Source of the DNA: Croceivirga sp.
GTDB taxonomy: Bacteria > Bacteroidota > Bacteroidia > Flavobacteriales > Flavobacteriaceae
Reading direction: 5' to 3'
Length of the DNA stretch: 48,102 nucleotides
Assembly: GCA_028284665.1 (NCBI GenBank)
Contig: JANQRG010000036.1
Location: forward strand, 1-48,102
Shown piece by piece: positions 4,950-37,513 of the stretch; positions within the stretch are counted from its first letter, which is position 1, and each line of letters begins with the position of its first letter. The position numbers and the translations under genes were made by a program. The notes under the pieces are model-generated. The model was not told the origin of the DNA. It saw only the letters and a program-made list of their open reading frames with translations, and made no database searches.

Positions 4950-5708
4950 TCAATTCAATTGTTCCAACTCCTCGTCAATGTTTTTCTTTAGGGCCTGGGC
5001 GCGTCGTTTAATCCCATCCCAACGAATTATCTGCTCCTGATTGCCTCCAAATTTTAACAACACCATTTTCCAATACTCCCGATTTTTTGAGAGTAGATGT
5101 GCATCCAGCTTATCCAGCATGGCGATATCTGCCACTTTCATGCCCAACATGGCAAGCCCTTCCTGATTGAGATATACATGTTCTACGAGAAGCGGGGTTA
5201 TAAACTCATCTGTGATCTGTCGTGTAGTACCATCGGTATAGGTGTCTTTAGCATTGCGGTAATAATTAAAAATGCGTTGACGGAGCGACTCATTTTTCAC
5301 ATAGCTCATTTTACCGGAGGAAACCGCTTCGTCAAAAATGCCACTGTTGCTTTTAAAATATTGATCAAACACAAACTCATAAGATTGTCTAACAAAACTG
5401 GTAACATCCAAACTATCAGGGGCTTTCAGGAGTTGTACCAAACTATCCAGCCGGCTTAGCCTTTCCCTGGATAGCGTGGTATTGTTTTCTATTTGCAGGA
5501 TGTCCAATCCAACGTCGTTAGAAAGGTTAGCCAGTAGGATCTTTTCTTGTTTTCGCTCCTTTTGTGATTCGCTGTAATTATTGATCTGTAAGGCAATTAA
5601 AATACCGATTACCACCAGGACAATTTCGCCAATGGCGTAGAGCAGGTATTTTGTGAACCTACTTTCTTGAAGGAGTTTTTGGCGGGTTTTTCTAAAGAAT
5701 TGGATCAT
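4950..5708 (-). CDS. DUF6090 family membrane protein (paralogue 4)
   Basis: 252 residues. It shares the family N-terminus MIQFFRKTRQKLLQES, followed by one transmembrane helix within GEIVLVVIGILIALQINN (about residues 27-45); the rest is a helical, charged, probably extracytoplasmic domain rich in short heptad-like stretches. This basic-amphipathic start plus conserved GEI(V/I)LVVIGILIALQ helix is the hallmark of the DUF6090 proteins found in multicopy in Flavobacteriia. The family has no known function. It is the last of the array and 2 bp upstream of the SDR start. Confidence 0.85.
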   Translation of the reverse strand: MIQFFRKTRQKLLQESRFTKYLLYAIGEIVLVVIGILIALQINNYSESQKERKQEKILLANLSNDVGLDILQIENNTTLSRERLSRLDSLVQLLKAPDSLDVTSFVRQSYEFVFDQYFKSNSGIFDEAVSSGKMSYVKNESLRQRIFNYYRNAKDTYTDGTTRQITDEFITPLLVEHVYLNQEGLAMLGMKVADIAMLDKLDAHLLSKNREYWKMVLLKFGGNQEQIIRWDGIKRRAQALKKNIDEELEQLN

Positions 5709-5709
5709 A

Positions 5710-6471
5710 CTACCTGTTCAGTTCCGCAGCTATTATTTCCAAAATCTCCTCAATATCCTCTTTTAGTGGAGCATAGTAGATAGCATTGGTGGTTTGAGAA
5801 ATGGCCTGGTAAAAAATTAAATCGTTTTCCACGGGTAAGTAATCAAACAACTTTTTTACGGCTACTCCCTCAAATTGAGAACTTCCGGCAACCTCATTGC
5901 CCACTGCTTTGAATATATTCCGTATGCTTATTTTTTCGGTCATATATTCCCCTAGACTATTTCTTCGAGATACCGCCCGGCTCTCCTGGCGTTTAACCCT
6001 TTCCAAAGCATTTCCAAAGGAAGCAATTTTTTGTCGAAGCAAAGGGTTTTTAAGCTGTTTTAGGTTCCCGGAACTGATGATATCGGTTTGTACCCCGGTA
6101 GAAGGATTATAGAATACCTCGTAGCGCAATGTAGTTCCAACGATGTTGGCAATTGCCGTTGAAGAGGTAGTATCCAACTTTTCTCTGTCAAAAAAAGTAA
6201 GGAGTTCGTCAAGTTGCATCACCAATTGCTCGTTGAGTTCAATAGCGGTATGTATTCGTTGAAGGTTGGTCCCAAATTCAGATTTCAAAGCTTCTAAGTA
6301 GGTCTTTTCAATTTGTCTTTCCGCCTTTAGGTTGTTCCAATTATTCACCTGAAGCGCAATAAGAATTCCGATAACCACCAGGATTATTTCGCCGATGGCA
6401 TACAGCAGATACTTGGAAAATCGATTCTCCCGGAGGAGTTTTTGACGAATATGGCGAAAGAATTGGATCAT
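5710..6471 (-). CDS. DUF6090 family membrane protein (paralogue 3)
   Basis: 253 residues, starting MIQFFRHIRQKLLRENRFSK, then the conserved helix GEIILVVIGILIALQVNNWN. The C-terminal domain is helical with little similarity by eye to the other copies except scattered positions, which argues for old duplications rather than recent copies. One base separates its stop from the next gene. Its start lies 4 bp inside the end of the decayed copy upstream. Function unknown; the single N-terminal anchor suggests the domain faces the periplasm. Confidence 0.85.
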   Translation of the reverse strand: MIQFFRHIRQKLLRENRFSKYLLYAIGEIILVVIGILIALQVNNWNNLKAERQIEKTYLEALKSEFGTNLQRIHTAIELNEQLVMQLDELLTFFDREKLDTTSSTAIANIVGTTLRYEVFYNPSTGVQTDIISSGNLKQLKNPLLRQKIASFGNALERVKRQESRAVSRRNSLGEYMTEKISIRNIFKAVGNEVAGSSQFEGVAVKKLFDYLPVENDLIFYQAISQTTNAIYYAPLKEDIEEILEIIAAELNR

Positions 6472-6698
6472 GGAGTAGCATTTTCCCCCTCCCGGGAGGG
6501 GAAGGTATATGTTTTTGTGCTCGTATTTACAGGCATACTATCAAAAAACATGAGGACAATCTCACCACAAGTGCAAAACAGGTAACTGGAGAACTGGCCC
6601 GTCCTTACCGAACGGGCACCTTCGGTTGGGTTTCCTGCCTTGCCGGCAGGCAGGTCCGAAAGGAGTTTTTGACGAATATGGCGAAAGAATTTAATCAT
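6468..6698 (-). pseudogene. Decayed DUF6090 gene disrupted by palindromic repeats
   Basis: The open frame begins with the family start MIKFFRHIRQKLLS, then reads DLPAGKAGNPTEGARSVRTG, then a recognisable but degraded remnant FSSYLFCTCGEIVL of the conserved helix, and stops after 76 codons where intact copies have about 250. The foreign stretch corresponds to DNA palindromes at 6634-6654 (CCTGCC...GGCAGG) and 6598-6616 (CCCGT...ACGGG); a third perfect 16-bp palindrome (CCCCTCCCGGGAGGGG) is at 6486-6501. The start still overlaps the upstream stop in the same ATGATTAA arrangement as an intact junction in this array. Best read as the stub of a fifth array member. Confidence 0.75.
6634..6654. repeat. 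21-bp palindromic repeat CCTGCC-N9-GGCAGG
   Basis: CCTGCC, a 9-base centre and GGCAGG form a hairpin-capable unit. With one mismatch the same 21 bases, plus the following tcc, occur at 8139-8159 inside another DUF6090 gene, at the equivalent codon position. Such short GC-rich palindromes are dispersed in many Bacteroidota genomes. Confidence 0.8.
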
Positions 6699-7443
6699 CA
6701 CTTTCTTTTAGTTTTTCTTGCAGCATATCAAGCAATTTTTCGGTATCCCTCCGTATTGCAGGATACATCGTATTCTTTTGAAAATCATAAAGCTCCATAA
6801 CATTGTATAGCTGATTGTGGAATAGGCGATACTGTTTGGAATTTATGTCAAGTTGCCAATCCATAACGGATTTATGCTGCTTTTTGGAAACATTGTTTTC
6901 ATAAAAATTATCGGTAGTTATGACGTATTCCTGAACGATATTGACCACCCCGTCAAAAGTTGTCCGTTCGTAGTATTGATATATTTCATGGGTATTTTTC
7001 AACTTGGCAATCGCTTTTTTCTCTACTTCGGAAAAGAGAATGATATCTCCGGTAGTTCCTAGTTCGTCTAAAGTAAAAGAAGACTTGTTAAAACTGTTTA
7101 TAGAGTAAATGACACTGTCCTTTTTTTGACGGAGCAAATTGATATTCAAGTTTTCACTATTGTAATAATCAATGTACTTTTCTATGTTGCCTTCGTGTTT
7201 TACCCGCAATTGGTTGAGGCTGTCCAGGGATTGAAGGTCCGTTTGAAGTTCGGATATTAGATTTTCTCTGTACTGCCTTAATTGTCCTTTTTTCCTTTGA
7301 TCCTCATTCCAATTGTTGATTTGCAGCGCAATCAAAATACCTATGACAACCAAAACAATTTCACCTATGGCATATAAAAGATATTTGGTGAATTTGCCCT
7401 CCGATAGGAGTTTTTGACGAATATGACGGAAGAATTTAATCAT
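6691..7443 (-). CDS. DUF6090 family membrane protein (paralogue 2)
   Basis: 250 residues with the canonical start MIKFFRHIRQKLLSEGKFTK, the membrane helix GEIVLVVIGILIALQINNWN, and a helical C-terminal domain. The start overlaps the stop of the upstream paralogue by 8 bp (ATGATTAA), and its own stop overlaps the decayed copy the same way. This is the best reference in the window for an uninterrupted N-terminus when judging insertions in the other copies. Function unknown. Confidence 0.85.
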   Translation of the reverse strand: MIKFFRHIRQKLLSEGKFTKYLLYAIGEIVLVVIGILIALQINNWNEDQRKKGQLRQYRENLISELQTDLQSLDSLNQLRVKHEGNIEKYIDYYNSENLNINLLRQKKDSVIYSINSFNKSSFTLDELGTTGDIILFSEVEKKAIAKLKNTHEIYQYYERTTFDGVVNIVQEYVITTDNFYENNVSKKQHKSVMDWQLDINSKQYRLFHNQLYNVMELYDFQKNTMYPAIRRDTEKLLDMLQEKLKESDD

Positions 7444-8203
7444 TGATTGCCGGTTCGGTTAATCTGATAATTTCATTGATCATTTTCGAAATACCTTCTT
7501 CTCTAACTGCGGTAATGTTGTTGTTCAAGTCTCCGGCCCTTTTGTAAATAAAATTTCTATGTTCTTTGCTAAATAAAGCTTTAGCATTATCCGGGTCGTT
7601 ATCGCTATCCGGATCAAAATTTAACCGTGCCCAGGGACCGTATTCGTAAAATAAGAAATTAGCCCCATATTCTTCTTCTTCCAAATAATCCGAAAGAACA
7701 TCCTTCCAGGAAATAAGGTTTCTTCTAAGCGTGTCGTTCGCAATCAAATCAAAAGATGAAGAATTTAAAAGTGCCTCAACTGTTCCGTTTTTTGGATTGA
7801 AGGATTTATTCCGCCAAACCAATTTATTGTAATATCCAATACTGTCCGCAAAGTGAGCATTTGCTTCCGTGATTTTTGGATCTTCCGGGTCGAATGCCTT
7901 TATAATCTCCTGAAACCTCGATGCCGCATGGTAGCTAATTTTGTTGAATTCGATAATAGAATCCAGTTGTTCTTTATTGGACTTGAAGTCCAGGTTGATT
8001 TCCCGTAAAAAGGCCTGTTCCTTGGCACGTTCCTTTCGCTCTTCGTTGTTGTTGTTTATCTGGAGCGCAATCAAAATACCGATGACTACCAGAATAATCT
8101 CACCAAGAGCATAAAACAGGTATTTTGAGAAGGAATCCCCTGCCTTGCCGCCAGGCAGGTCCATAAACAGTTTTTGGCGGATTCTTCGGAAGAGTTGGAT
8201 CAT
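7436..8203 (-). CDS. DUF6090 family membrane protein (paralogue 1, with in-frame repeat insertion)
   Basis: 255 residues, first gene of the array. The family start MIQLFRRIRQKLF is followed by an extra MDLPGGKAGD before the expected FSKYLFYALGEIILVVIGIL. The extra residues are encoded by the palindromic repeat at 8139-8159, inserted in frame so the protein stays open to a normal length. The insertion sits between the basic N-terminus and the membrane helix, so it may be tolerated as a cytoplasmic linker. A TATATTTG promoter element lies 29 bp upstream. Confidence 0.85.
   Translation of the reverse strand: MIQLFRRIRQKLFMDLPGGKAGDSFSKYLFYALGEIILVVIGILIALQINNNNEERKERAKEQAFLREINLDFKSNKEQLDSIIEFNKISYHAASRFQEIIKAFDPEDPKITEANAHFADSIGYYNKLVWRNKSFNPKNGTVEALLNSSSFDLIANDTLRRNLISWKDVLSDYLEEEEYGANFLFYEYGPWARLNFDPDSDNDPDNAKALFSKEHRNFIYKRAGDLNNNITAVREEGISKMINEIIRLTEPAIND
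8139..8159. repeat. Palindromic repeat inside a DUF6090 coding region
   Basis: CCTGCC-TTGCCGCCA-GGCAGG; one base differs from the copy at 6634-6654. It adds codons for LPGGKAG to the reading frame on the minus strand. Confidence 0.8.
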
Positions 8204-30049: not shown

Positions 30050-30610
30050 TCAATTTGCCTGGCGATTTTTATATAATTCAATTGCTTTTACATAATTCAC
30101 AGCACCTTTCCTACTTAAATCCTGAATAAATCCATCCAGTTCAGGATGATTTAACTTCACCCAACTCACCAAAGCGTCCCTCTCTTCTTGCCATATTTCC
30201 CAATTGGTGTCAATACAATCCAGATTTTCTATTTTGGTAATTTTCCCCGAATCAAAATGAAATCTATGCCTGCAGGTCAAAGGGTTGTTCTTTAGAAATT
30301 CAAATCGTAGAGAGTACACGGAAACCGTAGCAACCGGCTTATCCTCCTGATTTTCTATCGCCACTACATCATAAACGGGCTTGAAGACAGAATCCCACTT
30401 AAAATGCTCGTAATAACTCTCAGGGGTGAATGCCATTGTGTAGTCCCCTTCTGTAATGGTTAGGCTATCCGCTAGTGTTCCTTTGATCTTTTTATAATCG
30501 GAATGTTCAAAACCTTGATAATACTCCGTTATTTGCTCAGCTTCACTACTTTTCTCTTCCGTACAACTTGCGATTAAGTATACAATGGAAAGGAATACAA
30601 TTTTCTTCAT
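30050..30610 (-). CDS. Lipoprotein of unknown function
   Basis: 186 residues from ATG 30610. The start MKKIVFLSIVYLIASCTEEK is a lipoprotein signal peptide with lipidated Cys at residue 16. The mature part resembles an NTF2/SnoaL-like small domain (TEYYQGFEHSDYKKIKGTLA, YTMAFTPESYYEHFKWDSVF), followed by helices with LNHPELDGFIQDLSRKGAVN. The open frame extends to 30727, but that stretch contains the leader palindrome and is unlikely to be coding. Single gene. Confidence 0.75.
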   Translation of the reverse strand: MKKIVFLSIVYLIASCTEEKSSEAEQITEYYQGFEHSDYKKIKGTLADSLTITEGDYTMAFTPESYYEHFKWDSVFKPVYDVVAIENQEDKPVATVSVYSLRFEFLKNNPLTCRHRFHFDSGKITKIENLDCIDTNWEIWQEERDALVSWVKLNHPELDGFIQDLSRKGAVNYVKAIELYKNRQAN

Positions 30611-30924
30611 AGGGTAAATTTTCTCTATACTTGTTACCAACACGATGGTTTGAAGATCGTGTTGCTTCCCTTTTATATACCGGCTAAGATAAAGTATTGG
30701 TAGTACCTTGAAAATGCGTCCGATCATTTTTTAGTCCCGGTTTTGGTGATCTTTAGTATAGCACTTTTTACCGTTGGGCATAAAACCTTCCGAACAGCCC
30801 AATCGAATCCTGTAGATTCCCTAAAATCAAATTAAAATCATAGTGCCATAACGTTTGCAATTAACGAGAATGGAAAAACGCTTTCATTGAGCTGCTGCTT
30901 TAAAGGTCAAAACATGTTCCCTAC
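30611..30924. other. Intergenic region with leader palindrome
   Basis: Promoter and leader of the lipoprotein gene plus the 3' flank of the large mosaic gene. Apart from the inverted repeat at 30638-30664 nothing distinctive is seen, and no intrinsic terminator was recognised. Confidence 0.5.
30638..30664. promoter_or_regulatory. Perfect 9-bp inverted repeat in a lipoprotein leader
   Basis: CAACACGAT (30638-30646) and ATCGTGTTG (30656-30664) are exact reverse complements separated by 9 bases, centred about 40 bp upstream of the lipoprotein ATG. It could be a regulator's operator or an mRNA hairpin. Confidence 0.5.
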
Positions 30925-33900
30925 TTAGAATTCTACCGTCTGTACAGTCATATCCAGGTTTTCCCAATCTGTAATAGCCAATACCAGATCATGGTTAGCT
31001 GGAAACAGTACATTTCCTCGTTCGAGTTTTGAATGTGATTTAGTTATAGCATTTGCATTAAAGGCCGTGACACTTACCCGATTGGCCGCTCCTCGATTGC
31101 CTATACGTAAAATTGATAATTCTGGGGAGAGGGTAATATCTACATCTGAAGTCGGGCCGCCACCAACGCCTGATATAGCCACTGCTCTGATATCATCGTT
31201 TATTTGCCTTCCCAAAGTCAAAGTAAAGTTTTTGTCAATTGCCGGGGTGAATCTTATTTGCGTTCCGTCAGCATTAACAGAAAGGAGGTCTTCTTGCCCA
31301 TTATCGGTATCTACATTTTCCAAAACGATGGAAGTGCCGTTTGGAGAAATGGAGTTGTAAGTGTATGTGCCATTACCAGTACCGCAAATCCTTCGGGTCA
31401 GCGCCATATCTGTCGGCAACAAATAGGCTCCTTTAGCTAAATAACAGGGATGGCTGTCGGGTATTTCGGAAAGTATTTGCGATCCAAAATTACCTGTCCT
31501 GAATCCATCTGCATTTGTCACTTGAAGGTCGGCAGGCGACAACAAGAAATCCAGCACAAAAGTGGTTAAACCGAATGGACCGCCAAAAGGTAAATCGTGA
31601 TCGGTTAAAAGGTAGTTTCCGTTGGACATCACCCCTAAGGTGATACCATCTGTACTACTAAATTTGGGAGTAGTGCCCCCGTCAAAATAGTTGTAGTGGA
31701 TAAGCCCGTCTTGACGAAAAAACTCCAAACGGCAGTTTTGAGACTCTATGGCCGCGGAATCTTCCGTAGGCGGGTGGTTACAGTCCCAGCAAAAGAGGGT
31801 AACACCATCAGGATTTGTAGTCCCATCGGCAGCTGGACCCGGATGCCCGATCGGATAAATAAACCGAATTGGGACGATACAGTGGCTGTCACCTAATCGA
31901 TCAAAATAACCGGAATCCCAGGCGGCGCCGGATGGGATAAAGAACAACATTGGTGCATTATGGCGGGATACGCCATTATAAAAGATGGTTTCGATGTCTC
32001 TGTATGAACGCCCTACCCTGGCCACTTCCTCCCGGCTCTGGTCATGAAAATGCAATAAACTTTCTCTACTTAGGAGACGACCATGAATGGCTGTAAACTC
32101 GCGGCGGGTATTGGAGGTCAGGTCAAGATTTACAAACGTATCATTATTGCCGGTCCAGAACTGATCCAGTACTTTACTGGACATTGCTGTACAAAAACCG
32201 GTAGCCAGTCCACCGTTGGCTTCCCCCTTTAAAAAATGGTGATAAAATCCATAATAAGCGGCAGTAAGTACAGGATGACCAAAAATGGGATCCAACAATT
32301 CGTGCCAGACTTCAGCAGTACCAAATGTGTCCTCAAAAGTACCCCAAGAAGGAGCACCGTCGGTGAAGTTGTCAAAATTCAGGGAATGTAGGTCAAACTT
32401 GAACGGTACTTCCAGAATATTTGGAATAGTGGCGCTTCGTGAGTTACTGAGATGGCCATCCGGGTTGTTTACTTGAAGCGTAATGTTCGTTTCACTAATG
32501 CCGGCACCTCCGGTCCCTGGCATTTCAAATGAGAGGGTAGTAACATTCACAAAATTGGTGGGTACTGCTCGGCCATCTACCAAAACAGAAGCACCGTTTA
32601 GAAATGCCTTTCCCGTGACGGTCACAGTCGCCCCGGGATTCAATACTCCTGAAAAGGGATCCAATTGAGGTCTTATCCATAAGCGTAGTCGGTTGCTTTC
32701 ACTACCATCCTGACGACGAATATAGAGTTCCTTTTCCCCTCCAGTAATTGTTGAGGGTATTGTAATGGACAAACTTTCATCAGCATTGATGGTCGGAGAA
32801 ATGGAATCCGTTCCTAATCGGACCCTATCATTGGTAGTGAATTTACTTCCTTTGATGATTAGGGTATCTCCCGGGAATGGTGTTTCGGGGCTGAGCTCAG
32901 TTATCCAAGGCCTTAGAAGCAGTTCCTCCCATGCTGCTTCGGAAAATTCGTGGAACCTCAATTCGCCATCACCGCCATTCCGCAATCCATCAGCTCCTTC
33001 CCGGCCACGTTGACCACGAGCCCCCGGATGGCCATTATCGGCATCATGACACACTTCTCCGGCTCCACTTCGGCCACCCTGTCCTCCGAAACCTCCCTCT
33101 CCTCCGGGGCCTCCTTCTCCTCTTCTACCGCCTTGGTTTTTGATCTTAAATGCCTTATTTGTTACGGTAGATTCAAGAGTGTTGTTCAGTACGCCAATGG
33201 TAATATGACCTCCGTTTGCGCCATTACCACCACGTCCTCCGCGACCCCCGTCACCTCCGTTACCTCCATCTCCACCATCTCCCGGATCAGAAACACAGTG
33301 TTTACCAAAGAACCATGCCCATTTACCCCCGCTTGCATTGGCACCATTGCCACCACGACCTCCGCGTTGGCCCCTTCCCCCGCGAATGCCATCCTCTCCA
33401 TTAAGCTCAATATCGGGCATTGCCGTAAGTTCTTTGACCCAGATCTCTAACTTGGGCGCATTCACACCATTAGCACCCTTAATACCTGTAATACCATCCC
33501 TGGCATCTTCCCCATCTAAACCATCTCTCGAATTTTGTTTAGTATGTATACCCGAATAGCCACGTCCATTGAGATCTGGATTGTTAGCCCTAGGAGGGGT
33601 GCTACCTCCGGGTTTCCGCCAAGTGATAGCAGCATTGGGGCCTGCAATAACTTTTTCGGCAATTATCCAAAGGGTTACTACATCAGGTTCGATTACCAGT
33701 TTGGAGTTGGTTAAATCCAATGTTTTGGCAATAATGACAGAGTCATACACTGGAATGGAAGTGGAGTTCATCAAAACCATCTGCGAATTGGCCAAATTCG
33801 CCCAATGGGCAGGTTCTGGGCTTTCAATTAAATTCAAAATTCCGCTATTCTTTACGGATAACCGGCTATTTTCGAAACCCATCATTTCGGAAATATACAG

Positions 33901-35031
33901 TTTGTTTTTGGCCCGCTCAAAAGCATTGGCTGAGGTAACAAAATTAAGTTTGCTTTGTTGCCAGACCGAACTTCCAGTTTTATTTCTGGAAAGAAAAGGA
34001 GCCATGTTCAATGAACCTCCGCTTGTTGGGGCATTGCTCTTCAAATGATCCGAAGATGCTTTTGTGGATTGGTTTTTGTTGATAGTCTCTTGAATGAAAT
34101 ACTTGCTATTGCGGTTTAACAAATTGGTAGCCAGGATGGTCTTTAGCTCTGGTTTAGGAATGTTTGCGATGTTTTTAGCCAGTTCAGCCCAATCGATTGG
34201 GTTGGTGGATTCCATCACCTTTCTGGGCGCCAGGATGACTCTTCCCCTTGTGATGGTTGTTTGCGAGGTGATTTGGAGGGTATCCAGATCGTTGAGGTCT
34301 TCTACTCCTACAGCATTCATTATCGCTTTGACCGGTTGAAGACGAGCGTAGCTTTCATCTTCCTGTAGCCTTACCACTATCCTTTCTAGATTAAGCATAC
34401 TCCTTAGTTGTGCAGTCAGGGTGTTTTCTCTTCTTATCCGGTCTTCTTTAGCTTGCCTTGATAGCACACTACTGGAAATAGAAAGCCCTGTCAGGGTGCC
34501 CGAAAAAAAGTCTGCCCCACCTGCTTTGGCCGCTCCTATGAAGAATCCATTTTTGGATCCAATCTTTTTAATCTTACTTCTAATGGGCTTAGACTCTACA
34601 GTTTCCCCGTTAATGGTAAGGGAGGTTTCCCCTGCTTTATCACGAGAAAACAGGATGTTGTACTCCTTACCCGCTTCTATTAGGGTGTTGCCACTTGTTA
34701 CCTTGGTCCATTTGTTTGTTCGGACGGCCCCTACTAATTGGCCGGACTCGTTAATATACAGTTTGATACCTTCACCTGTAGCATCCAAGATTGTTTGGTG
34801 ACGGTCACCCGCCTTTAAATTAATGGTAGCCTCAATGGTAAAATATTCCAGGTCCTGTAATTCCCCTTTGTGGTTAAGCTTTACGAAACCACCATTATTA
34901 AAGATCAGTTTACTGTTTTTTACATCCAATTGAACCTTACGATTGGGTTTAAGGGAAATACCGGATGGAGAAGCATCATAAAAGCTGTTTTCATCAATAT
35001 TCAGATAAAACAGTGATCTGGTAATACTCAT
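30925..35031 (-). CDS. 1368-residue mosaic protein: LamG-like, collagen-like, IPT/TIG, predicted papain-like domain
   Basis: No signal peptide (MSITRSLFYLNIDEN). Domains by eye: a LamG/concanavalin-like jelly roll (about 10-195); a helical linker (about 196-400); a beta-rich part ending in four Gly-rich collagen-like blocks (about 503-523, 545-568, 582-610, 632-690, for example GDGGDGGNGGDGGRGGRGG); two IPT/TIG sandwiches (about 708-790 and 791-866). A region follows with GLATGFCTAM (Cys947), DSHCIVPI (His1050) and LFCWDCNHP (Asp1083/Asn1085) in the order and spacing of papain-like peptidases. The last about 250 residues are beta-rich. It is monocistronic with long non-coding flanks (314 and 652 bp). 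It may be exported by a non-Sec route or act inside the cell. The peptidase domain is inferred. Confidence 0.75.
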   Translation of the reverse strand: MSITRSLFYLNIDENSFYDASPSGISLKPNRKVQLDVKNSKLIFNNGGFVKLNHKGELQDLEYFTIEATINLKAGDRHQTILDATGEGIKLYINESGQLVGAVRTNKWTKVTSGNTLIEAGKEYNILFSRDKAGETSLTINGETVESKPIRSKIKKIGSKNGFFIGAAKAGGADFFSGTLTGLSISSSVLSRQAKEDRIRRENTLTAQLRSMLNLERIVVRLQEDESYARLQPVKAIMNAVGVEDLNDLDTLQITSQTTITRGRVILAPRKVMESTNPIDWAELAKNIANIPKPELKTILATNLLNRNSKYFIQETINKNQSTKASSDHLKSNAPTSGGSLNMAPFLSRNKTGSSVWQQSKLNFVTSANAFERAKNKLYISEMMGFENSRLSVKNSGILNLIESPEPAHWANLANSQMVLMNSTSIPVYDSVIIAKTLDLTNSKLVIEPDVVTLWIIAEKVIAGPNAAITWRKPGGSTPPRANNPDLNGRGYSGIHTKQNSRDGLDGEDARDGITGIKGANGVNAPKLEIWVKELTAMPDIELNGEDGIRGGRGQRGGRGGNGANASGGKWAWFFGKHCVSDPGDGGDGGNGGDGGRGGRGGNGANGGHITIGVLNNTLESTVTNKAFKIKNQGGRRGEGGPGGEGGFGGQGGRSGAGEVCHDADNGHPGARGQRGREGADGLRNGGDGELRFHEFSEAAWEELLLRPWITELSPETPFPGDTLIIKGSKFTTNDRVRLGTDSISPTINADESLSITIPSTITGGEKELYIRRQDGSESNRLRLWIRPQLDPFSGVLNPGATVTVTGKAFLNGASVLVDGRAVPTNFVNVTTLSFEMPGTGGAGISETNITLQVNNPDGHLSNSRSATIPNILEVPFKFDLHSLNFDNFTDGAPSWGTFEDTFGTAEVWHELLDPIFGHPVLTAAYYGFYHHFLKGEANGGLATGFCTAMSSKVLDQFWTGNNDTFVNLDLTSNTRREFTAIHGRLLSRESLLHFHDQSREEVARVGRSYRDIETIFYNGVSRHNAPMLFFIPSGAAWDSGYFDRLGDSHCIVPIRFIYPIGHPGPAADGTTNPDGVTLFCWDCNHPPTEDSAAIESQNCRLEFFRQDGLIHYNYFDGGTTPKFSSTDGITLGVMSNGNYLLTDHDLPFGGPFGLTTFVLDFLLSPADLQVTNADGFRTGNFGSQILSEIPDSHPCYLAKGAYLLPTDMALTRRICGTGNGTYTYNSISPNGTSIVLENVDTDNGQEDLLSVNADGTQIRFTPAIDKNFTLTLGRQINDDIRAVAISGVGGGPTSDVDITLSPELSILRIGNRGAANRVSVTAFNANAITKSHSKLERGNVLFPANHDLVLAITDWENLDMTVQTVEF

Positions 35032-35683
35032 GTTTACTTAAGTTTTAATGTTTTGTTTAATCAAATGAACCTATATGTTTTCTGTAAATGGGTGTAGCAA
35101 AACTTGCCATTGTATTTAATGGCAAAGAATGAGTCCTTCCCTTTGATAAGGAAGTCATACATATCTCAATACAGCCTAAAGGGGGGAATTGTTCTCAGAG
35201 AACATACCTACAATAATTACATGATTCTTATAGAAGGCGAGGGGAACTAAATGACAAAAGCCATCCGTAAATTAACTTAAGTAATGTAAGAAAATTATTT
35301 AAAATGCGAGATAGTAAAATTGTTAAATTAAACTATTAAGGCACTAATTTAAATACAAAGTAAGCCACCATATTCAAATTGAGTTTTAATAAGAGAAGGG
35401 TTTTGAATAATAGCTGTAAGCTTACTTCCAATTTGTTTTTTTGGTTAAGTGGCTTTACTAAATAAGTTGTTTATTCTAACAATTTCAACTTACTACTTTT
35501 AGCATTTAATGGGATTGCTATGCATAAGGTTTATTCCGCGCTATGAGTTCAATTTGAAATCGCACTATAAAAAAGTGAGTTAAACTACTAAGCTCAATAA
35601 ATCTTACTCGTATTTAGCGTAAATTTATTGAGCGTCCCGCTAACACAAAGACAAAAGGGAGAATTCAAGACTGTTTCATCGAA
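35032..35683. other. Long AT-rich intergenic region between divergent genes
   Basis: 652 bp between the mosaic gene (minus) and the pyruvate-kinase-like gene (plus). No coding frame, tRNA or strong hairpin was recognised. It must hold both promoters; many AT-rich partial matches exist but none was convincing. Confidence 0.5.
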
Positions 35684-37513
35684 ATGAAGGTTAAAATTGA
35701 AAAAATTCAGGAGACTATTGCCGATCTGAACCAGGTAGTAGCGGCGATCTTAGCAGCAGAAAAGGACCAACAAGCTGTGTTGGATGACGTACATGAAGAA
35801 TATACCCGGAGTGCTCAAAACTTGGTGCATTATCGCGCCTTTCGAAAATTTGATTTGCGCACTACCCAAAAGAAGCTCCGCAATCTTGGACTCACTCGTT
35901 TTGCCAATGCCGAAGGCCATATTTTGGCCAGCATCACCAATACCTTGTTCATTCTCAAAAAATTGATCGAAAATGCGGAAGGCGATGTGATCCGCCCCAA
36001 ACTCTCCATCAAAAAAGGGAAACGCCTCCTCAGCAAAAACACGCGGGCGCTATTGGGATATCGCTCCCAGGGAAGACGTGTACGCATTATGGTGACCCAG
36101 CCCACGGCATCTGCTTACAACTATCGGATGGTGCATGAAATGGTAGCGCATGGAATGAACGTTGCAAGGATCAATTGTGCTCACGATTCGCCTGAAGTTT
36201 GGGAAATGATCATTGCTAATGTAAGAAAAGCAGCAAAGGCACATGGGCGACAGGTAAAAATTGCCATGGATCTGGCAGGCCCAAAAATCCGAACAGGAAG
36301 TATTACCCCGGGCCCAAGGATTCGGAAATTCACTCCTGAAAAAGATGTGACCGGAAGTATTATCCAACCTGCCGAGATAGTACTGGTACCCAAGATAGAC
36401 GAATTTTCGCTTCCGAACACCTTGCCACTCGCGCCTGAGGTACTGGAAACATTGAAGGTACAGGATGAATTTATATTGACGGATACCCGGAATAAAAGAC
36501 GTAGGCTTAAAGTCATTGCAAAGCGAGATTCAGGGATTCGTGCCCATTGCTATGAAACCTCTTACATTGGTACAGGTACTATCCTAGAGTGTACCAACAG
36601 GGAATTACCGCCGGTTGTGGTGGGAGCGCTTCCTTCAGTGGAACAATCCATAATCTTACGAATGGGTGATGTTTTTACTATCGTTCAAGAGGGTATTGAA
36701 GGGCTCCCGGCTGTAATCGATGAAGATGGCAATGTGATCCAAAACGGTAAGATCTCCTGCCAGTTGCCGGAGGTTTTCGGATTCATTAGCTCCGGGGATC
36801 GCATCCTTTTTGATGACGGGAAGATAGAAGGGGTTATTGAAACGGTCCGGGAAGGCGCCTTTGATGTACGTATCCTATTGGCCAAAGAAAACGGATCAAA
36901 ACTCAAGGCCGAAAAAGGAATTAATTTTCCGGATACCAGTTTAGGTATTGGCGGATTGACAACAAAGGACAAACAGGACCTGGAATTTGTTGCCCAACAC
37001 GCCGATATTGTTAATTTTTCCTTTGTGAACTCCAAAAAGGATGTAGACGAATTGCATGAAGAACTCGAAAAACATGGGGTGTTGAATCAACTGAACGTTA
37101 TCCTCAAAATAGAGACCAAGTATGCGGTAGCCCATCTCACTGAGATCTTATTGGCGGCGATGCAATCCAAATGTATTGGGGTTATGATCGCCCGGGGGGA
37201 TCTCGCGGTGGAAACCGGCTGGGATACCATTGGAAAAGTGCAGGAAGAGATCTTGTTGTTGTGTAGCGCCGCCCATGTACCTGTAGTTTGGGCTACGCAG
37301 GTATTGGAAAACCTTGCGAAGAAAGGACTACCGTCCCGATCTGAGATCACAGATGCTACCATAGCACTTCAGGCAGAATGTATTATGCTCAACAAAGGTC
37401 CCTATATCAACAGAGCGATCGCTTTGTTGGACACAATGCTTTCGGATATGGAAGCCAATCACGAAAAGAAGGAGGTAATGCTCCCCAAACTGGAAAGTCT
37501 TTTGACCAAATAA
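35684..37513 (+). CDS. Atypical long pyruvate kinase family protein
   Basis: 609 residues. About 130 N-terminal residues are a helical extension (KIEKIQETIADLNQVVAAIL...) unlike ordinary pyruvate kinase. The barrel then shows NVARINCAHDS (159-169), MDLAGPKIRTG (195-205), KGINFPDTS (411-419), ILKIETKYAV (Lys475, the proton-relay Lys), MIARGDLAVE (501-510) and ATQVLENLAKKGLPSRSEITDA. The B-domain insertion is enlarged (about 206-400), and the C-terminal regulatory domain is essentially missing. In the rabbit enzyme K+ is bound through Asn, Ser, Asp and Thr; here Ser is Ala and Thr is Leu, and the Glu117 position is Lys201, as in K+-independent enzymes. It is probably a phosphoenolpyruvate-pyruvate phosphotransferase, but a divergent role is possible. 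Confidence 0.85.
   Translation: MKVKIEKIQETIADLNQVVAAILAAEKDQQAVLDDVHEEYTRSAQNLVHYRAFRKFDLRTTQKKLRNLGLTRFANAEGHILASITNTLFILKKLIENAEGDVIRPKLSIKKGKRLLSKNTRALLGYRSQGRRVRIMVTQPTASAYNYRMVHEMVAHGMNVARINCAHDSPEVWEMIIANVRKAAKAHGRQVKIAMDLAGPKIRTGSITPGPRIRKFTPEKDVTGSIIQPAEIVLVPKIDEFSLPNTLPLAPEVLETLKVQDEFILTDTRNKRRRLKVIAKRDSGIRAHCYETSYIGTGTILECTNRELPPVVVGALPSVEQSIILRMGDVFTIVQEGIEGLPAVIDEDGNVIQNGKISCQLPEVFGFISSGDRILFDDGKIEGVIETVREGAFDVRILLAKENGSKLKAEKGINFPDTSLGIGGLTTKDKQDLEFVAQHADIVNFSFVNSKKDVDELHEELEKHGVLNQLNVILKIETKYAVAHLTEILLAAMQSKCIGVMIARGDLAVETGWDTIGKVQEEILLLCSAAHVPVVWATQVLENLAKKGLPSRSEITDATIALQAECIMLNKGPYINRAIALLDTMLSDMEANHEKKEVMLPKLESLLTK

What the first reader, a model, noticed from the sequence alone, without database searches (positions are those of the whole stretch)
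30925..35031. Giant mosaic protein with collagen-like repeats and a predicted papain-like peptidase domain, without a signal peptide
One chain combines a LamG-like lectin fold, a helical linker, four collagen-like Gly blocks, two IPT/TIG domains and a region with Cys947, His1050 and Asp1083/Asn1085 in papain-like order (GFC...; SHCIVPI; CWDCNHP). Such combinations suit a secreted structural or predatory/defensive protein, yet no export signal is visible. The gene is isolated by long non-coding flanks. I know no described protein with this full order of domains.
Basis: partly seen in the sequence, partly recalled or inferred. Interest (0 to 1): 0.75.

Follow-up and report, generated by a model that had tools for sequence, protein, structure and literature searches.

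The report
Leaderless glycine-scaffold protein with swappable enzyme
A rare 1,368-residue bacterial protein, found in a few distantly related bacteria and lying in what looks like a single-gene insert, seems to hold up an undescribed enzyme-like domain on a glycine-rich stalk that carries a different enzyme in another lineage.

Summary
The ORF is real: 30925-35031, minus strand, 1368 aa. LamG and two TIG domains are confirmed. The 'collagen-like' blocks are better read as Pro-poor, partly GGX (polyglycine-II-like) stretches inserted in a beta-rich module. The domain order is not unique: four full-length relatives (49-51% identical) occur in three Algoriphagus and one betaproteobacterial MAG, none with an evident signal peptide. 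Window residues 446-864 also align (99.9% probability) to a Priestia plasmid protein that ends in an SGNH hydrolase instead. The gene lies in single-gene inserts: here it took the place of a PadR-permease pair, leaving about 100 bp of the permease (30728-30826); in Algoriphagus three of three non-carriers fetched have an empty site. The papain-like call is neither confirmed nor refuted: C947/H1050/D1083/N1085 are invariant in 5 of 5, but only chance-level Pfam, NCBIfam and PDB matches exist, C39/C10 profile comparisons score at chance, and the AlphaFold model is unusable there. An eCIS marker is absent from this genome.

The parts
30925..35031 (-). Whole gene, 1368 aa, ATG start, no evident signal peptide
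34453..34896 (-). LamG/concanavalin-like domain, residues 46-193
   Evidence: Pfam Laminin_G_3 E 4.4e-14; ten-residue mean pLDDT 74-88 over residues 61-150; Foldseek top matches include concanavalin-like jelly rolls
33757..34446 (-). Partly helical, little-conserved linker, residues 196-425 (12% invariant columns, as in LamG)
32920..33756 (-). Beta-strand module with Gly-rich insertions, residues 426-704 (67-69% identical to Algoriphagus, 63% to the betaproteobacterial copy; homologous to Priestia P0002 from about residue 446)
33457..33534 (-). Gly-rich stretch, residues 500-525 (one Gly phase)
33322..33402 (-). Gly-rich stretch, residues 544-570 (mainly one Gly phase)
33202..33285 (-). GGX block, residues 583-610, 57% Gly, two Gly phases, 16 of 16 Gly invariant
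33061..33135 (-). GGX block, residues 633-657, 56% Gly, two Gly phases, 14 of 14 Gly invariant
32962..33036 (-). Gly-rich stretch, residues 666-690 (mainly one Gly phase, 7 of 9 Gly invariant)
32668..32919 (-). First TIG/Ig-like domain, residues about 705-788 (border set by eye)
32428..32667 (-). Second TIG/Ig-like domain, residues about 789-868 (border set by eye)
31537..32427 (-). Orphan Cys-His domain, residues 869-1165: proposed hydrolase (papain-like order), no known family detected
32191..32193 (-). Cys947 codon, candidate nucleophile, invariant 5 of 5
31882..31884 (-). His1050 codon, candidate catalytic base, invariant 5 of 5
31783..31785 (-). Asp1083 codon, candidate third residue, invariant 5 of 5
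31777..31779 (-). Asn1085 codon, invariant 5 of 5
30928..31536 (-). C-terminal beta-rich region, residues 1166-1368, no family
30728..30826 (+). Remnant of the 3' end of a MacB/FtsX-type permease gene that occupies this place in a sister species
30827..35603 (.). Approximate extent of the acquired DNA; the giant gene is its only recognised gene
35684..37513 (+). Flanking pyruvate-kinase-domain gene, anchor for synteny

Best explanation
A stand-alone, horizontally acquired presentation protein. A LamG-type domain binds a ligand (probably a glycan); a beta module packed with polyglycine-II-like strands and two TIG domains forms a stiff stalk; the stalk holds up a C-terminal Cys-His hydrolase, most likely a papain-like cysteine peptidase or amidase with Cys947 as nucleophile, His1050 as base and Asp1083 orienting the His. 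The stalk is a chassis whose C-terminal enzyme can be exchanged (SGNH hydrolase in Priestia). It should act outside the cytoplasm but leaves without a Sec signal, by an unidentified route or on cell lysis. SHOWN: the gene, its relatives, the different C-terminus in Priestia, the single-gene inserts, low dN, no evident leader. INFERRED: extracellular site, stalk shape, ligand binding, catalysis, export route.
For: Full-length relatives with the same order in Bacteroidota and one Pseudomonadota MAG. Scaffold homology to a Priestia protein over window residues 446-864 (profile columns 458-876; 99.9%, E 6e-38), after which that protein is annotated SGNH/GDSL hydrolase in 7 of 7 plasmid records with a weak Pfam GDSL hit (E 7e-5, below its cut-off). 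The Cys-His region is among the most constrained parts: 61-66% identity to the window versus 22-28% for LamG; dN 0.050-0.058 versus 0.12-0.19 for LamG. C947/H1050/D1083/N1085 invariant. The low-confidence model puts Cys947 near the start of a helix (943-959), His1050 just before a strand (1051-1053) and Asp1083 just after one (1078-1082). Four short Bacteroidota proteins sharing the Gly module (L006, L007, L012, L015) have N-termini that look like Sec signals by eye, so the module can work outside the cytoplasm. Single-gene inserts.
Against: No match of the Cys-His region to a known peptidase above chance (Pfam, NCBIfam, PDB); hhalign against C39-like and C10-like profiles scored at chance (39 of 60 and 51 of 60 column-shuffled nulls scored at least as high). 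The model of that region is unusable. Invariance of the four residues is weak evidence, because 46% of columns there are invariant. No export route identified; domain types suggest, but do not prove, an extracellular site. The linker part of the Priestia match is not supported (E 0.09). Gly-rich composition inflates the Priestia profile score. Only one alternative enzyme type was seen.
Confidence: 0.45

Rival explanations
1. Effector or toxin-like cargo of a contractile injection system (eCIS or T6SS), which would explain the missing Sec signal.
For: No evident Sec signal in 5 of 5. Two of the five carrier genomes have the eCIS marker Pvc16_N. PMC11297309 (passages seen) works from the hypothesis that eCIS toxins lack a canonical signal peptide. 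An SMI1/KNR4 gene lies upstream of the Priestia relative in both regions viewed, and an immunity-22 gene in one of them.
Against: Pvc16_N not found in this genome, G453 or G454. None of the ten window neighbours scanned is an injection-system or immunity-like protein by Pfam, and the inserts hold no second recognised gene. T6SS was not searched.
Confidence: 0.15
2. A purely structural or adhesive protein: residues 869-1368 are a non-catalytic disulfide- or metal-stabilised region, and the C-H-D order is coincidence.
For: Seven further Cys are invariant (579, 661, 1051, 1081, 1084, 1100, 1196), including a CxxC that flanks the proposed Asp1083; no peptidase match by any search used.
Against: The Priestia relative has an enzyme-family domain at the equivalent place. 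The low-confidence helix/strand order around C, H and D fits a papain-like core.
Confidence: 0.25
3. A Cys-His enzyme of another chemistry on a papain-like fold (transglutaminase, acyltransferase or deamidase) that cross-links or modifies surface polymers.
For: The C-H-D order is shared by papain-like and transglutaminase-like enzymes (recalled); the enzyme on the Priestia scaffold is of an esterase-type family.
Against: No such Pfam family in the scans.
Confidence: 0.15

Closest known systems
PE_PGRS proteins, especially PE_PGRS35 of mycobacteria (PMC9436101, passages seen)
   Same: A glycine-rich domain proposed to fold as a polyglycine-II sandwich, followed by a C-terminal enzyme (an aspartic protease in PE_PGRS35).
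   Different: No PE domain in the window protein; it adds LamG and TIG domains, its Gly strands alternate with beta strands, and the enzyme-like domain is a Cys-His one. Resemblance of design, not shown homology.
Priestia megaterium/aryabhattai plasmid 'SGNH/GDSL hydrolase family protein', 882 aa (WP_286676976.1 in one record, P0002)
   Same: Homologous Gly/beta module and TIG pair in the same order; also no evident Sec signal (by eye).
   Different: No LamG match, short N-terminus, SGNH hydrolase in place of the Cys-His domain.
Short Gly-rich proteins of Bacteroidota (L006, L007, L012, L015)
   Same: Gly/beta module, 39-42% identical.
   Different: N-termini that look like Sec signals, about 280-400 residues stop to stop, no TIG or Cys-His region seen.
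Bacteroides ovatus SGBP-B (PDB 6e57, 6e9b)
   Same: Best Foldseek matches of the C-terminal model, over about 170 columns, taken to be the TIG pair.
   Different: A glycan-binding protein of a polysaccharide-utilisation locus; no Gly module or Cys-His domain (recalled).
Papain-like peptidases (clan CA), e.g. Peptidase_C39_2
   Same: C-H-D order, and a low-confidence helix/strand order that fits.
   Different: No sequence or profile similarity above chance.

Membership tests
Papain-like cysteine peptidase (clan CA) | Detectable sequence/profile similarity to a member family | tested here: not met
   Pfam empty; NCBIfam and PDB hits only at chance level; hhalign against C39-like and C10-like profiles at null level. 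Clan members can be too distant for these tests
Papain-like cysteine peptidase (clan CA) | Conserved Cys...His...Asp/Asn in this order | tested here: met
   C947, H1050, D1083, N1085 invariant 5 of 5; weak, because 46% of columns there are invariant
Papain-like cysteine peptidase (clan CA) | Papain-like fold with the three residues adjacent | tested here: inconclusive
   AlphaFold2 model with ten-residue mean pLDDT 22-36 over residues 871-1090, not usable
Papain-like cysteine peptidase (clan CA) | Peptidase activity dependent on the Cys | not testable with these tools
   needs an assay
Collagen-like (GXY triple helix) | Long GXY repeats, Pro-rich, collagen Pfam match (definition recalled) | tested here: not met
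   Pro 0-4%, densest blocks GGX with two Gly phases; no collagen family in the Pfam scan at E up to 1
Laminin_G_3 / concanavalin-like | Pfam score over cut-off | tested here: met
   53.3 bits versus 27.6; 4 of 5 family members match at E up to 1
IPT/TIG | Pfam score over cut-off | tested here: met
   43 bits versus 20.9, two stretches; 5 of 5 members match at E up to 1
PE_PGRS | N-terminal PE domain | tested here: not met
   No PE family in the Pfam scan; the N-terminus is LamG
PE_PGRS | Export by ESX-5 | not tested
   not searched
eCIS effector | Encoded in an eCIS-bearing genome | tested here: not met
   Pvc16_N (PF14065) not found in G000 (97% complete draft), G453, G454; present in G451, G452. 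One marker only
T9SS cargo | Sec signal plus a C-terminal sorting domain (definition recalled) | tested here: not met
   No evident Sec signal; no sorting-domain model in the NCBIfam scan of the whole protein at E up to 1
T6SS cargo | T6SS in the genome | not tested

The most novel reading that the evidence does not exclude
A mobile, leaderless delivery chassis: a polyglycine-II/TIG stalk that spreads between phyla as single-gene inserts and carries exchangeable C-terminal enzymes (an undescribed Cys-His hydrolase family in Bacteroidota and Pseudomonadota, an SGNH hydrolase in Bacillota), with the chassis itself mediating exit from the cell and attachment by an unknown, Sec-independent route.
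Probability: 0.2. Interest if true: 0.75.

Novelty: new variant of a known kind. Interest (0 to 1): 0.5.

Why it matters
It joins two puzzles. First, a conserved enzyme-like domain with invariant Cys, His and Asp matches no family in Pfam, NCBIfam or the PDB above chance. Second, a protein built of domain types usually found outside the cytoplasm has no evident export signal in any of five full-length sequences or in a Bacillota relative. A scaffold that can move as one gene between phyla and carry different enzymes would be a simple test bed for Sec-independent presentation of enzymes and for the role of polyglycine-II domains outside mycobacteria.

Tried and rejected
Homology of the Cys-His region to known peptidases. 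Pfam: whole protein and the core of 5 of 5 sequences at E up to 10 gave none. PHROGs: none. NCBIfam: whole protein, then A3, gave besides CoaZ_rpt a Soli_cterm match in 3 of 5 members (best E 1e-4); one search places it in the second TIG (3 of the 4 TIG segments given; the window's own TIG segment was not given again). In the Cys-His/C-terminal segments one search lists only ClpP (E 0.06 and 0.19; two Algoriphagus) and uridine phosphorylase (E 0.09; the MAG copy), far below their cut-offs and taken as chance; ClpP is not a Cys peptidase (recalled). PDB by profile: best E 0.36 and 0.24, none a cysteine peptidase. hhalign with C39-like and C10-like sets from related genomes scored within the column-shuffle null. 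Of the 30 loci I gave 19 to that script; one (L103) was dropped as too short, leaving 14 C39-like and 4 C10-like segments (the label C10-like is recalled). A first attempt read minus-strand loci on the wrong strand and was redone.

Foldseek hits of the N-terminal model to clostridial neurotoxin receptor-binding domains (13-18% identity) are read as fold-level jelly-roll matches, not kinship. 'pdb_via' was not available.

Phage or viral origin: no match in 50,697 phage records (C-terminal part, whole protein) or in viral contigs (89 pattern matches, 0 confirmed). Defence systems: no PADLOC match for the protein, P0002 or two neighbours.

Mobility signals: no convincing repeats at the borders of the insert. 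One 15-nt inverted pair (87% complementary) lies inside the coding region near both gene ends (30982-30996 and 35009-35023); I take it as chance but did not test it. Promoter-like sites were fewer than in shuffles (4 versus 9.8) and terminator-like sites about equal (5 versus 5.2).

Weak profile matches: three in the order of G453 (E 0.007-0.046, 26-58 positions, two with internal stops) taken as chance; one further Pseudomonadota match covers only the first TIG. The core in plasmids at E up to 10: one match, E 5. Four neighbours of the MAG copy had no Pfam match.

In one search nine partial relatives were read; three (L010, L011, L013) were read on the wrong strand and not assessed, two (L008, L009) are TIG repeats, four are the short Gly proteins cited.

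Literature, search listings only: asked for the domain combination and listed three papers each, none of which by title and abstract start describes it; some searches were on neighbouring subjects. Only the open-licence library is covered. PMC10318531 (passages) showed no LamG, and its one TIG passage is an unrelated gene name.
Full report
What is there. The ORF lies at 30925-35031 on the minus strand, 1368 aa, starting with ATG. Only two in-frame codons precede the ATG before a stop, so a longer N-terminus is impossible. No hydrophobic stretch occurs in the first 60 residues. Pfam finds Laminin_G_3 (46-193) and two TIG stretches; NCBIfam adds the 'choice-of-anchor Z' repeat at the TIG region. 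Residues 869-1368 have no family match above chance.

The glycine blocks. Five stretches were examined. The two densest, 583-610 and 633-657, are GGX repeats with 56-57% Gly and 4% Pro, with Gly in two phases; 30 of their 30 Gly are invariant across five sequences. A collagen triple helix needs Gly in one phase and is usually Pro-rich (recalled). The pattern resembles the polyglycine-II sandwiches proposed for PGRS domains (PMC9436101, passages). In the AlphaFold model the Gly stretches are long insertions between beta strands at 430-471, 527-542, 609-615 and 690-696 (pLDDT below 50 over 474-524, 545-605 and 635-686, so the polyglycine-II reading rests on sequence).

Relatives. A scan of genome contigs gave 22 pattern matches, 4 of which encode relatives, all full-length: three Algoriphagus (L002, L003, L005) and one betaproteobacterial MAG (L004). 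Identity to the window is 49-51%. Their N-termini show no signal peptide by eye, and none has an in-frame ATG, GTG or TTG upstream. The MAG copy has 70% GC against 67.5% in its flanks, so it looks adapted to its genome rather than a contaminant. The family is rare in what was searched: 1 of 60 relatives (itself; 0 of 10 other species of the genus); 1 of 395 in the phylum with the C-terminal profile (itself); 3 of 72 in the genus of the Algoriphagus G451 (the three known carriers); 2 of 398 in the phylum of the MAG (itself and one TIG-only match); 4 of 349 in its order with the core profile at E up to 0.05 (itself plus three judged chance). With the whole protein, 13 of 395 phylum genomes match; apart from the window's own gene, the 14 listed matches are partial, in the Gly module or the TIG region only. 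The genome-contig scan finds close relatives only, so more distant ones may exist.

Which parts are constrained. Identity of the window to the MAG copy is 22% in LamG, 25% in the linker, 63% in the Gly/beta module, 63% and 46% in the two TIGs, 66% in the Cys-His region and 55% in the C-terminal region. Among the Algoriphagus copies dN is 0.050-0.058 in the Cys-His region and 0.043-0.051 in the C-terminal region, against 0.12-0.19 in LamG and 0.15-0.24 in the linker; the first TIG is as low (0.032-0.051). dS is saturated (about 1.5 or more) or undefined, so ratios (0.036 overall for L003-L005, the only pair with a defined overall value) are rough.

The scaffold carries another enzyme elsewhere. 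tblastn in the plasmid collection gave 14 records: 7 Priestia (query from 442 to 834-864) and 7 Streptomyces (TIG region only). The Priestia protein (882 aa) aligns to the family profile over columns 458-876, window residues 446-864, at 99.9% probability, E 6e-38, with both TIGs included. Beyond that point it is annotated SGNH/GDSL hydrolase in 7 of 7 records, with a weak Pfam Lipase_GDSL_2 hit (E 7e-5, below cut-off). Gly-rich composition inflates such scores; ordinary blastp finds the start of the Gly module (E 4e-14) and one TIG (E 1e-7, the window's second against the Priestia first) separately. So two different C-terminal domains follow the same scaffold.

How the gene got here. In the sister species G001 the place between the pyruvate-kinase-domain gene (93% identical) and the homologue of the neighbour at 30050-30727 holds a PadR regulator and a MacB/FtsX permease. 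G008 has a like pair next to the kinase (by eye; only the G001 pair was scanned). The window keeps only the end of the permease: 89 bp from 30728 at 88% DNA identity to G001, 98 bp at 77% to G008, and a tblastn match to residues 850-904 of 906 at 30689-30826, 65% identity, E 5e-14. PadR has no match in the window. Similarity to G008 resumes at 35604. The acquired DNA is therefore about 30827-35603 and contains this gene alone. Whether the pair was lost in the same event cannot be told. The other two genomes fetched (G007, G005) have unrelated genes next to a 53-54% identical kinase and do not inform. In Algoriphagus, the three non-carriers fetched (G459, G506, G456, the best-scoring non-carriers among the 25 genomes) have the neighbouring genes side by side, with 62, 97 and 97 bp between the matched stretches; for the two with 97 bp the carrier L005 has 4784 bp between the same points. 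Carriers L002, L003 and L005 share the position. So two unrelated sites hold single-gene inserts; the site in the MAG was not compared with an empty one. No border repeats were evident, so the mechanism of insertion is unknown.

The peptidase question. C947, H1050, D1083 and N1085 are invariant in 5 of 5, but so are 46% of columns in that region; a rough product of four gives about 4-5% by chance. The five-sequence AlphaFold model has ten-residue mean pLDDT of 22-36 over residues 871-1090, so adjacency cannot be judged; its helix/strand order fits a papain-like core, which is only suggestive. Homology searches gave chance-level hits at most, and hhalign with C39-like and C10-like profiles was inside the null (39 of 60 and 51 of 60 shuffles at least as high). 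I put a papain-like hydrolase at roughly 50%, mostly on the motif order and on my recall of how such domains look.

Export. Four short proteins sharing the Gly module (L006, L007, L012, L015) have N-termini that look like Sec signals; this protein and the Priestia relative have none visible. The eCIS marker PF14065 was not found in this genome, G453 or G454, and is present in G451 and G452. T6SS was not tested. PMC11297309 (passages) works from the hypothesis that eCIS toxins lack canonical signal peptides, so the idea is reasonable in general but unsupported for this genome.

Verdict. A real, conserved, rare and horizontally acquired protein, not unique in architecture, whose scaffold carries a different C-terminal enzyme in Priestia. 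The functional reading (a scaffold presenting a Cys-His hydrolase outside the cell) is plausible but rests on inference for catalysis and location.

Noticed in passing
window 30050-30727: This 225-aa ORF has its listed ATG next to the junction with the permease remnant; its true start may be internal. The G001 homologue appears as two overlapping ORFs in different frames (L051:11928-12604).
   Followed up: partly
window 4950-8203: Four neighbouring paralogous ORFs with very similar N-termini and a hydrophobic stretch (DUF6090-like by recall).
   Followed up: no
L021 and L113 (Priestia plasmids): An SMI1/KNR4 gene, and in L113 also an immunity-22 gene, lies upstream of the SGNH relative; such families are immunity proteins in polymorphic toxin systems (recalled).
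   Followed up: no
L006, L007, L012, L015: Short Bacteroidota proteins made of the Gly/beta module with N-termini that look like signal peptides.
   Followed up: partly
L087, L088, L090, L096: C10-like cysteine peptidase segments (label recalled) turned up by the Peptidase_C39_2 search in related genomes.
   Followed up: no
L051:8650-11715 and L052:12126-15191: PadR plus MacB/FtsX permease pair that occupies the giant gene's place in a sister species (G001) and lies next to the kinase in another (G008).
   Followed up: yes
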